Below, piece after piece: positions 25,551 to 27,447 of a stretch of 64,000 bases of DNA. Each line of letters starts with the position of its first letter. Position 1 is the stretch's first letter. The stretch spans positions 186,001-250,000 of the forward strand of contig NZ_JANIBO010000001.1 of the NCBI RefSeq assembly GCF_024506395.1, read 5' to 3'. Source of the DNA: Cetobacterium sp. NK01. Lineage in GTDB: Bacteria > Fusobacteriota > Fusobacteriia > Fusobacteriales > Fusobacteriaceae. A program made the translations under genes and the position numbers. Below the pieces are notes generated by a model that was not told the origin of the DNA, searched no databases, and worked only from the letters and a program-made list of their open reading frames with translations.

Positions 25551-26429
25551 ATGTTATTTTTATTTATTTTAATACTTATTGCTGTATTTTTAATTGGAAC
25601 ACATATTAGAATCGTTGCTCAATCACAAGCTTTCGTTGTAGAAAGATTAGGAGCATATTTAGCTACTTGGGATGTTGGTTTAAATGTTTTAATTCCATTC
25701 GTCGATAGAATTGCTAAAAGAGTATCTTTAAAAGAACAAGTTATTGATTTTCCACCACAACCTGTTATTACAAAGGATAATGTTACTATGCAAATAGACT
25801 CTGTTGTCTATTTCCAAATTACCGACCCTAAATTATATACTTATGGTGTTGAAAATCCTTTAAATGCCATTGAAAATTTAACAGCAACAACTTTAAGAAA
25901 TTTAATTGGAGAGTTAGAACTTGATGCTACTCTAACATCAAGAGATACAATCAATACTAAAATGAGAGTTATTTTAGATGAAGCTACCGATCCTTGGGGA
26001 ATAAAGATAAATAGAGTAGAACTTAAAAATATCATTCCTCCTGCTGAAATTCAAGATGCTATGGAAAAACAGATGAAGGCAGAAAGAGAGAGAAGAGAGT
26101 CAATTCTTAGGGCTGAGGGACAAAAAAAATCTGCTATATTAGTTGCTGAAGGAGAAAAGGAGGCTACTATCCTAAGAGCTGAAGCTAAAAAAGAAGCTGC
26201 AATTAAAGAAGCTGAAGGAGAGGCTGAAGCTATTCTTAGTATCCAAAAAGCTAATGCTGAAGCTATTAAACTTATTAAAGAAGCTGCTCCTGATAAAAGT
26301 GTTCTTATGATAAAAGGAATGGAAGCTTTTGAAAAAGTTGCAAATGGTCAAGCTACAAAAATCATTATTCCTAGTGAATTACAAAATATAGTTACTTTAA
26401 GTGAACTTTTCAAAGAGTCACAAAAATAA
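25551..26429 (+). CDS. qmcA: SPFH/Band 7 membrane protein QmcA
   Basis: The product has 292 residues. One N-terminal membrane segment (1-20), the SPFH domain with QSQAFVVERLGAYLATWDVGLNVLIPFVD and TATTLRNLIGELELD, then a long Glu/Ala/Lys coiled coil (about 165-245, EAEAILSIQKANAEA). Stomatin-like proteins assemble membrane microdomain cages. Operon with NfeD, as in E. coli ybbK-ybbJ. An unusual pair of RNA hairpins follows. Confidence 0.9.
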   Translation: MLFLFILILIAVFLIGTHIRIVAQSQAFVVERLGAYLATWDVGLNVLIPFVDRIAKRVSLKEQVIDFPPQPVITKDNVTMQIDSVVYFQITDPKLYTYGVENPLNAIENLTATTLRNLIGELELDATLTSRDTINTKMRVILDEATDPWGIKINRVELKNIIPPAEIQDAMEKQMKAERERRESILRAEGQKKSAILVAEGEKEATILRAEAKKEAAIKEAEGEAEAILSIQKANAEAIKLIKEAAPDKSVLMIKGMEAFEKVANGQATKIIIPSELQNIVTLSELFKESQK

Positions 26430-26557
26430 TTAATTATTATATTGCATGTGTAACAATTTATATATCACTTAAAAATATATTTTAAGAATTTTTATTTCAA
26501 AAAAATATTGTGTTTTTTTAAAAATTACGTTAAAATTATACCAACAACTTGGCTATT

Positions 26558-26614
26558 TACGATAAAATAAGTTGGATTTAGTTTTTATACTATATCGCAT
26601 GTATATTTTACGTA
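26558..26614 (+). repeat. RNA hairpin element, copy 1 (conserved 34-nt loop)
   Basis: Left arm TACGATAAAATA (26558-26569), 34-base loop 26570-26603, right arm TATTTTACGTA (26604-26614): 11 pairs with one bulge. The loop is the same as that of copy 2 (26675-26708) except for two bases, while the arms are unrelated in sequence. Confidence 0.7.
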
Positions 26615-26663
26615 GCGTTAATTTTTTTCAATATTAAAGATTTAAAATTTCAAAGCTAAGTTG

Positions 26664-26721
26664 AAAAGAGAGTAAGTTGGATTTAGTTCTTATACTATAT
26701 CGCATGTGTACTCTCTTTTTT
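26664..26721 (+). terminator. RNA hairpin element, copy 2, ending in a T-run
   Basis: Arms AAAAGAGAGTA (26664-26674) and TACTCTCTTTT (26709-26719) pair perfectly. The 34-base loop begins AGTTGGATTTAGTTCTTATA, continues CTATATCGCATGTG, and repeats copy 1. The following T-run makes it a terminator with an unusually long conserved loop. Confidence 0.7.
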
Positions 26722-26728
26722 TATAAAA

Positions 26729-26753
26729 AAAACTGAGAATTTATCTCAGTTTT
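26729..26753 (-). terminator. Terminator of the pirin gene
   Basis: AAAACTGAGA / TCTCAGTTTT around a 5-base loop; T-rich on both sides. Confidence 0.8.
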
Positions 26754-27447
26754 ATTTTTTCTTTATTTCAAAAATTAACATGTGAGTATCTTCTAAAGAG
26801 TTAATTTCGATATTTTCATCTCCCATTATTGCTTCATATTTATCCGCAATTAAATCTGATATTTTTGTCTTTCCCTGAAAAAATGCTATATAATAACCAT
26901 ATCCTTTATTTGGAGAAAATTTTATTTTTCTATTTTTTTCTAAATATAAAGCATATATATTTACACTCTGATTTATCTTTATAGGAGCTTCTTTCTCACC
27001 AGAGGCTATTAATAAAAGTTTATTAACTCTATCTTCCCATTTAAAATCAACTTGTCCATACTTTGGTTCATAACCATTTTTATCAGGAATTATCCAAATT
27101 TGCACTAATCTGGTTTCTATATTCTCCTTATTAAACTCTGAATGGGACACCCCTTTTCCTGCACTCATATACTGAACTGATCCTTTTTCAACTTTTTTTT
27201 CTTCATTATGGATGTTGTCTTTATGAGTTATCGCTCCTTCTAATATATATGTTAATATCTCCATATCTTTATGTGAATGAGTTTCAAATCCTGTGTGAGG
27301 AGCTATAATATCGTCATTTATAACTCTAAGAGGTCCAACTCCTAAATTATGAGAATCGTAGTACTCACCAAAAGAGAAATGATGCAGAGAATACAACCAG
27401 TCAAATTTGCTTTCTCCCATATGACTTTTTAATTTTTTTATTAACAT
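26752..27447 (-). CDS. Pirin-family bicupin
   Basis: The product has 231 residues. The first cupin contains the metal motif APHTGFETHSHKDMEILTYILEGAITHKD (His-x-His and Glu/His ligands) and GKGVSHSE, as in YhhW/YhaK quercetinase-like pirins. The C-terminal cupin lacks a clear metal set. Physiological role is usually redox or stress related and unknown here. Shine-Dalgarno is weak (AAGGGGG at about 10 bases). Confidence 0.88.
   Translation of the reverse strand: MLIKKLKSHMGESKFDWLYSLHHFSFGEYYDSHNLGVGPLRVINDDIIAPHTGFETHSHKDMEILTYILEGAITHKDNIHNEEKKVEKGSVQYMSAGKGVSHSEFNKENIETRLVQIWIIPDKNGYEPKYGQVDFKWEDRVNKLLLIASGEKEAPIKINQSVNIYALYLEKNRKIKFSPNKGYGYYIAFFQGKTKISDLIADKYEAIMGDENIEINSLEDTHMLIFEIKKK

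What the first reader, a model, noticed from the sequence alone, without database searches (positions are those of the whole stretch)
26437..26721. Tandem RNA hairpins with an invariant 34-nt loop and unrelated, intact stems
Copies at 26558-26614 and 26664-26719 have loops differing in two bases while the stems share no sequence and still pair (11 pairs each). That covariation-like pattern points to a functional RNA element whose loop is the conserved part. A third degenerate copy (TATATTGCATGTGTA near 26440-26452) lies closer to qmcA. I know no family with this loop.
Basis: seen in the sequence. Interest (0 to 1): 0.65.

Follow-up and report, generated by a model that had tools for sequence, protein, structure and literature searches.

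The report
New tandem-motif small RNA in Cetobacterium
A fish-gut bacterium carries a previously undescribed small non-coding RNA that shows the same folded recognition site twice, probably so that an unknown protein can bind it; its parts have clearly evolved together to keep the fold, but its function has not been tested.

Summary
The two hairpins (26557-26615, 26664-26719) belong to one structured RNA of about 180 nt, about 26541-26722 (+). The genus is Cetobacterium. The RNA has a conserved promoter-like position, an enclosing helix P0, hairpin P1, a small hairpin P2, and terminator hairpin P3. The '34-nt loop' is not an open loop. It is a folded core: AGU-UG-GAU ... AUC-G-CA-UGU, capped by a short variable apical hairpin.

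A covariance model finds it in 5 of 98 Fusobacteriota genomes, all Cetobacterium and all close relatives of the window's species, plus two Cetobacterium somerae 'ceto' plasmid records. Twelve of 21 pairs show two-sided changes (0/500 shuffles). P0 arms pair only with their own partner, not with those of other lineages. The RNA sits at unrelated sites in different genomes, usually as a tandem pair, but singly on plasmids and on one MAG contig. Rfam has no match. CsrA is absent from 12 of 12 genomes. No antisense target sites, conserved peptide or shared neighbour was found.

Best reading: a new small-RNA family that presents a duplicated docking motif to a protein. The RNA family is very likely real; the protein partner is inference.

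The parts
26508..26536 (+). putative promoter: TTGTGT - 17 nt - TAAAAT
   Evidence: In alignment A7 the aligned positions keep TTG ... TAaAAT with a 17-nt spacer in 5 of 5 tandem loci from four lineages. The scan tool finds it in G009 (TTGCAA/TACAAT) and G002 (TTGCAA/TAAAAT), but not in G000 or p1. Several equal-scoring sites exist in G000 and p1, so it is only suggestive.
26541..26722 (+). whole small RNA (start inferred from the promoter, end from the U tract)
   Evidence: 193-nt fold -45.3 kcal/mol, z -4.7, 0/200 shuffles; the same architecture was folded independently for C. somerae p1 and G009
26545..26554 (+). P0 5' arm (enclosing helix)
   Evidence: fold; pairs with its own linker at -13.7 kcal/mol, with other lineages' linkers at -3.3
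26557..26615 (+). P1, first motif hairpin
   Evidence: R1 63.4 bits; fold
26570..26602 (+). motif copy 1: AGUUGGAUUUAG (26570-26581) and CUAUAUCGCAUGU (26590-26602)
   Evidence: AGUUGG and the CGC of the 3' arm are invariant in 12 of 12 aligned hairpins
26618..26645 (+). P2, small linker hairpin, sequence not conserved
   Evidence: predicted at the same place in three independent folds; absent from G002, which has no linker
26654..26663 (+). P0 3' arm
26664..26719 (+). P3, second motif hairpin; also the stem of the intrinsic terminator
   Evidence: R1 77.4 bits; fold z -4.2
26675..26707 (+). motif copy 2: AGUUGGAUUUAG (26675-26686) and CUAUAUCGCAUGU (26695-26707)
26716..26722 (+). U tract of the terminator
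   Evidence: read from the sequence; a run of 6 or more U at the 3' end in 5 of 8 loci (G000, p1, G008, G006, p3), weaker in G009, G002 and plasmid C7

Best explanation
It is a stand-alone gene for a structured, trans-acting small RNA of about 180 nt, specific to the Cetobacterium somerae group. Shown computationally: RNA-level structure with compensatory change, a tandem pair of near-identical internal-loop cores, a terminator formed by the second hairpin, and no dependence on any neighbouring gene. Inferred: the core (AGU-UG-G ... C-G-CA-UGU) is a docking site for one protein partner, because its sequence is fixed while every helix around it and the apical loop are free to vary. With two sites, the RNA would act by capturing or delivering that protein, as CsrB- or 6S-type RNAs do. 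My probabilities: real structured RNA 0.95; free-standing small RNA gene 0.85; works through a bound protein rather than by base pairing or a small ligand 0.5.
For: Two-sided changes at 12 of 21 pairs in 12 distinct hairpins, covariation score 0.343 against 0.157 shuffled, 0/500. P0 arms pair within a lineage at -13.7, -11.0 and -10.1 kcal/mol but across lineages at only -2.8 to -6.9. The same P0[P1,P2]P3 fold comes out independently in three lineages. The apical helix is remade in p3 as UAGG-GAAA-CCUA, and GAU/AUC becomes GGU/ACC in the second copy of G002. Same-position promoter-like hexamers in 5 of 5 tandem loci. Neighbours differ at every distinct site, and in G000, G008 and G009 no same-strand gene directly follows the terminator. 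Both copies in a genome share lineage-specific changes: G000 has 3 extra apical bases in both, G002 has CUUG for CAUG in both, as expected if one partner reads both. Antisense sites to either arm are not enriched in RNA-bearing genomes.
Against: No transcript has been seen and no partner is known. The first hairpin of G008 and the whole unit of G002 do not fold better than shuffles (z -0.24; z -0.74). The promoter match is weak in G000 and p1. CsrA, the best-known partner of such RNAs, is absent. Single copies on plasmids and in G006, the latter with a C-rich apical loop, do not need a two-site mechanism and could be base-pairing RNAs. Shared changes in both copies could also come from gene conversion.
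Confidence: 0.5

Rival explanations
1. Base-pairing (antisense) small RNA: the conserved arms are seeds that pair with target mRNAs, and the hairpins hold and present them.
For: Most bacterial trans-acting small RNAs work so (established knowledge). FoxI and FoxJ of Fusobacterium nucleatum use C-rich seeds, FoxJ in a hairpin loop (passages of PMC11005410), and the G006 copy has a C-rich apical loop.
Against: The conserved letters lie inside a helix and internal loop, not in an open loop, and apical loops vary freely. Outside the RNA itself, the 5'-arm complement CTAAATCCAACT occurs 6 times in the 5 RNA-bearing genomes and 11 times in the 7 others. The 3'-arm complement, 1 mismatch allowed, occurs 0 and 4 times. 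The 8-mer TCGCATGT is not over-represented in G000.
Confidence: 0.2
2. A small-molecule aptamer or riboswitch-like element, tandem as in the glycine riboswitch, whose ligand stabilises the terminator hairpin.
For: An invariant internal loop within freely varying helices, two tandem copies, and the second one part of a terminator.
Against: No gene of a common pathway follows it: pirin lies convergent in the window, nrdH-nrdAB starts over 600 nt away in p1, other genes elsewhere. The terminator hairpin holds the motif inside its own loop, so binding would not switch between alternative folds.
Confidence: 0.12
3. A passenger of mobile DNA: a terminator or regulatory hairpin of plasmids or other mobile elements, copied to chromosomes, with no trans-acting role in the host.
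For: Copies on a 4.1-kb plasmid, a 188-kb plasmid and a 664-kb plasmid. Chromosomal copies lie at unrelated, rapidly changing sites.
Against: All four sampled lineages with the tandem form keep the same unit, from promoter-like hexamers to terminator, with P0 re-made by compensatory change in three of them. That implies host-level selection.
Confidence: 0.13
4. A folded single-stranded DNA site such as an integron attC site or a transposon end.
For: GTTGGAT and GTTGGGT fit the attC core GTTRRRY (recalled, not from a call). Site positions differ between genomes.
Against: The 3' arm ATCGCAT is not the RYYYAAC partner. Only 1-3 sites per genome, no array. A G-U pair, a conserved promoter-like position and a one-sided U tract point to RNA.
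Confidence: 0.03

Closest known systems
CsrB/RsmY-type protein-sequestering small RNAs (features recalled)
   Same: stand-alone RNA with repeated, sequence-fixed protein-site hairpins in variable stems; an intrinsic terminator at the end
   Different: CsrA is absent from all 12 Cetobacterium genomes searched; GGA is in a helix and not in an apical loop; two sites rather than many
FoxI and FoxJ small RNAs of Fusobacterium nucleatum
   Same: free-standing small RNAs in the same family of bacteria; F. nucleatum lacks Hfq and ProQ according to PMC11005410 (passages read)
   Different: those act by C-rich seeds under sigma-E, and foxJ lies upstream of ylmH (passages); the tandem RNAs have no C-rich loop (only the G006 single copy does), another gene context, and the model finds nothing in the 86 non-Cetobacterium Fusobacteriota genomes
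ANTAR target RNAs (recalled)
   Same: two hairpins, the second overlapping a terminator
   Different: ANTAR sites have conserved hexaloops, whereas here the apical loop is free and the internal loop is fixed
Type III toxin-antitoxin RNAs, e.g. ToxI (recalled)
   Same: tandem structured RNA repeats near a terminator, found on plasmids
   Different: no toxin gene seen next to it; copies share only the core, not whole repeats

Membership tests
any Rfam 15 family | covariance model score at or above the gathering score | tested here: not met
   whole window: only five tRNAs; 26200-26900 at E<=10: nothing near any gathering score
CsrB/RsmY sponge | CsrA protein in the genome | tested here: not met
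   PF02599 in 0 of 12 Cetobacterium genomes; rings in 3 of 14 control genomes, E. coli and B. subtilis among them
CsrB/RsmY sponge | GGA in hairpin apical loops | tested here: not met
   both G of GGA and the A are in pairs of the inner helix (G-C, G-C, A-U); apical loops vary
FoxI/FoxJ | C-rich seed | tested here: not met
   no C run in the tandem RNAs; one in the single G006 copy only
FoxJ | position upstream of ylmH | tested here: not met
   the window RNA lies between qmcA and a pirin gene
FoxI/FoxJ | sigma-E dependence | not testable with these tools
   needs expression data
type III toxin-antitoxin RNA | toxin gene directly downstream | tested here: not met
   the neighbours scanned are pirin, NfeD, HxlR, GNAT, Rep3, Band_7 or without a Pfam match (10 proteins from four of the seven distinct sites; some had no Pfam match, so an unknown toxin is not excluded there)
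integron attC | paired RYYYAAC ... GTTRRRY cores | tested here: not met
   only the GTTRRRY half fits; the other arm is AYCGCWT
ANTAR target RNA | conserved hexanucleotide apical loops in both hairpins | tested here: not met
   apical loops differ in length and sequence, from a GAAA tetraloop in p3 to a long arm in G006

The most novel reading that the evidence does not exclude
A lineage-specific RNA regulator that travels between chromosome, 664-kb replicon and small plasmids, and that carries a new internal-loop recognition motif read by a still unknown RNA-binding protein, in a phylum where the usual small-RNA proteins (Hfq, ProQ, CsrA) appear to be missing. It would be a direct handle for finding a new bacterial RNA-binding protein.
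Probability: 0.3. Interest if true: 0.7.

Novelty: new member of a known kind. Interest (0 to 1): 0.55.

Why it matters
Little is known of RNA regulation in Fusobacteriota outside F. nucleatum. My searches for Cetobacterium with sRNA or non-coding RNA returned no paper on a Cetobacterium small RNA in their listings. A compact, fixed motif in two copies is an ideal bait: one pull-down could name the protein or ligand that reads it. The motif also gives a clean case of a small RNA that keeps its structure by compensatory change while its gene moves between sites and replicons.

Tried and rejected
Third copy at 26440: rejected. It has the 3' arm only, no model hit, and is not seen after qmcA in the three relatives read.

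Spread beyond Fusobacteriota: the full pattern gave 0 in genome contigs and 0 in viral contigs. 235 matches with full flanks showed no excess of pairing flanks over shuffled partners. R1 over 80 of 116 and 80 of 120 of those loci gave best E 0.99 and 0.071. I judged these chance.

Weak R2 matches in the genus (26.2 bits and below, against 46.6 for the weakest accepted copy): the best lies in a coding gene; the others shown lack parts of the core and most are plain hairpins. The G002:C8 pattern match is inside a coding gene. Short hits in three genomes of family f4 had only the 3' arm.

Small protein: in G000 and G009 both motif copies can be read LDLV..LYRM or similar, but p1 and G008 have stops in that frame and G002 is shifted (frames of p1 and G008 read by eye).

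Phages and E. coli: no meaningful match; plasmid matches outside Cetobacterium are weak AT-rich matches.

Left out before counting: alignment A5 holds 12 of 13 hairpins found in distinct records, because the first copy of C. somerae p1 has the same letters as that of G008; NZ_CP092525 is identical to G009:C7 and was not counted twice.

Full report
Observation. The window holds two 38-nt copies, 95% identical, at 26568-26605 and 26673-26710. No third match exists in 64 kb at up to 3 mismatches, with 0 expected. The flanking stems are different in the two copies and pair in both. The supposed third copy near 26440 has only the 3' arm and is not found by either model.

What genus. The 4,104-base contig C7 of G009, a genome in the window's genus, is identical to plasmid NZ_CP092525.1 of Cetobacterium somerae CS2105-BJ. 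The window's genus is therefore taken to be Cetobacterium (Fusobacteriaceae), 12 genomes held.

Homologues. A pattern for both arms found tandem pairs in G000, G008 and G009. A covariance model from those six hairpins (R1) was run on 98 Fusobacteriota genomes: 5 of 98 match, all in this genus. They are G000 two copies, G008 two, G009 two plus one on C7, G002 two and G006 one. A second model from 12 hairpins (R2), run on the 12 Cetobacterium genomes, gives the same 10 copies at 46.6 bits or more; the next match has 26.2 bits and lies in a coding gene. Named records add the C. somerae 'ceto' plasmids p1 (two copies, upstream of nrdH-nrdAB, the same site as G008) and p3 (one copy). By qmcA identity the five carriers form the group closest to the window (97-100%, G006 over 178 residues only), while the other seven, at 92% or less, lack the RNA. 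It is thus an invention, or an acquisition, of the somerae group.

Structure. In 12 distinct hairpins the outer helix (12 pairs) has two-sided changes at 9 pairs and the inner helix at 3. In all, 90.3% of cells are paired; the covariation score is 0.343 against 0.157 in shuffles (0/500) and at most 0.141 for slid partners. AGUUGG and CGC are identical in 12 of 12. p3 closes the apical part with a GAAA tetraloop on UAGG/CCUA; G006 has a much longer apical arm with a C-rich loop; C7 has almost none.

The whole unit. Folded separately, the units of G000, C. somerae p1 and G009 give the same plan: a helix P0 enclosing P1 and a small hairpin P2, then P3 (z -4.7, -2.3, -4.6). P0 is the sharpest test. 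Each leader pairs with its own linker (-13.7, -11.0, -10.1 kcal/mol) but poorly with those of the other two (-2.8 to -6.9). Against 2,000 mononucleotide shuffles, 0, 0, 16 and 20 are at least as stable for G000, p1, G008 and G009. G002 lacks the linker, and its whole unit does not fold better than shuffles (z -0.74). That result is against a fixed P0 and is reported as such.

Gene borders. In five aligned tandem loci from four lineages, TTG and TAaAAT hexamers lie 17 nt apart at the same place upstream. The scan tool confirms them in G002 and G009 only, and in G000 and p1 other sites score as well. The last hairpin ends in six or more U in 5 of 8 loci. No peptide frame is kept.

Context. Sites are unrelated: qmcA-pirin in G000; upstream of nrdH in G008 and p1; near a sirtuin gene in G009; between a cas-like gene cluster and a CRISPR array in G002; next to GNAT and HxlR genes in G006; plasmids p3 and C7 (sirtuin and cas-like genes named by eye). 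At the qmcA site G008 and G009 carry another gene of about 500 nt in place of the RNA. At the nrdH site the similarity between p1 and G009 begins right after the RNA's 3' end. The RNA moves as a unit, but I saw no transposase or repeat that moves it and did not search for one by family.

Mechanism. There is no cis gene in common, no enrichment of antisense sites, and fixed letters confined to an internal loop. I think a protein-docking motif in two copies is most likely (0.5). CsrA itself is excluded for these genomes. F. nucleatum is said to lack Hfq and ProQ (PMC11005410, passages); I did not test those two here. Base pairing (0.2), a small ligand (0.12), a mobile passenger (0.13) and a DNA site (0.03) remain.

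Known or new. No Rfam family matches. Searches of the paper library for Cetobacterium with sRNA (1 paper, on carp) and Cetobacterium somerae with non-coding RNA (9 papers, 8 listed, none on a Cetobacterium RNA by title) gave nothing (listings only). Two further term searches gave no account of such a motif (listings only). It is a new family of a known kind, bacterial structured small RNAs.

Noticed in passing
L028 3763-12785 (G002:C25): A type III-like CRISPR-Cas cluster (cas genes recognised by eye, not searched) with two arrays of different repeats (15 and 9 copies listed); the tandem RNA lies between the cas cluster and one array.
   Followed up: partly
window 26430-26750 and L297/L298 2385-2892: The gap between qmcA and pirin is a turnover site: an RNA gene in G000, an unrelated gene of about 500 nt on the other strand in G008 and G009.
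   Followed up: partly
L315 297-1069 (G000:C2): At the nrdH site where p1 and G008 have the RNA, G000 has a gene resembling chloramphenicol acetyltransferases by eye, not searched.
   Followed up: no
L029 8178-8245 (G006:C67): Single copy of the motif with a long apical arm ending in a C-rich loop, like the C-rich seeds of FoxI/FoxJ; it might be a base-pairing variant that uses the same docking core.
   Followed up: partly
window 26570-26602 and 26675-26707; L028 6304-6415: Both copies in one genome share lineage-specific changes (concerted evolution, G000 and G002) although their stems stay different.
   Followed up: partly
L284 7532-9052 (C. somerae p3): An SPFH/Band_7 gene lies 2.4 kb from the p3 copy, and the window copy lies next to qmcA, also SPFH; probably coincidence.
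   Followed up: partly
window 26729-26753: A symmetric terminator-like hairpin follows the RNA and could serve the convergent pirin gene as well.
   Followed up: no
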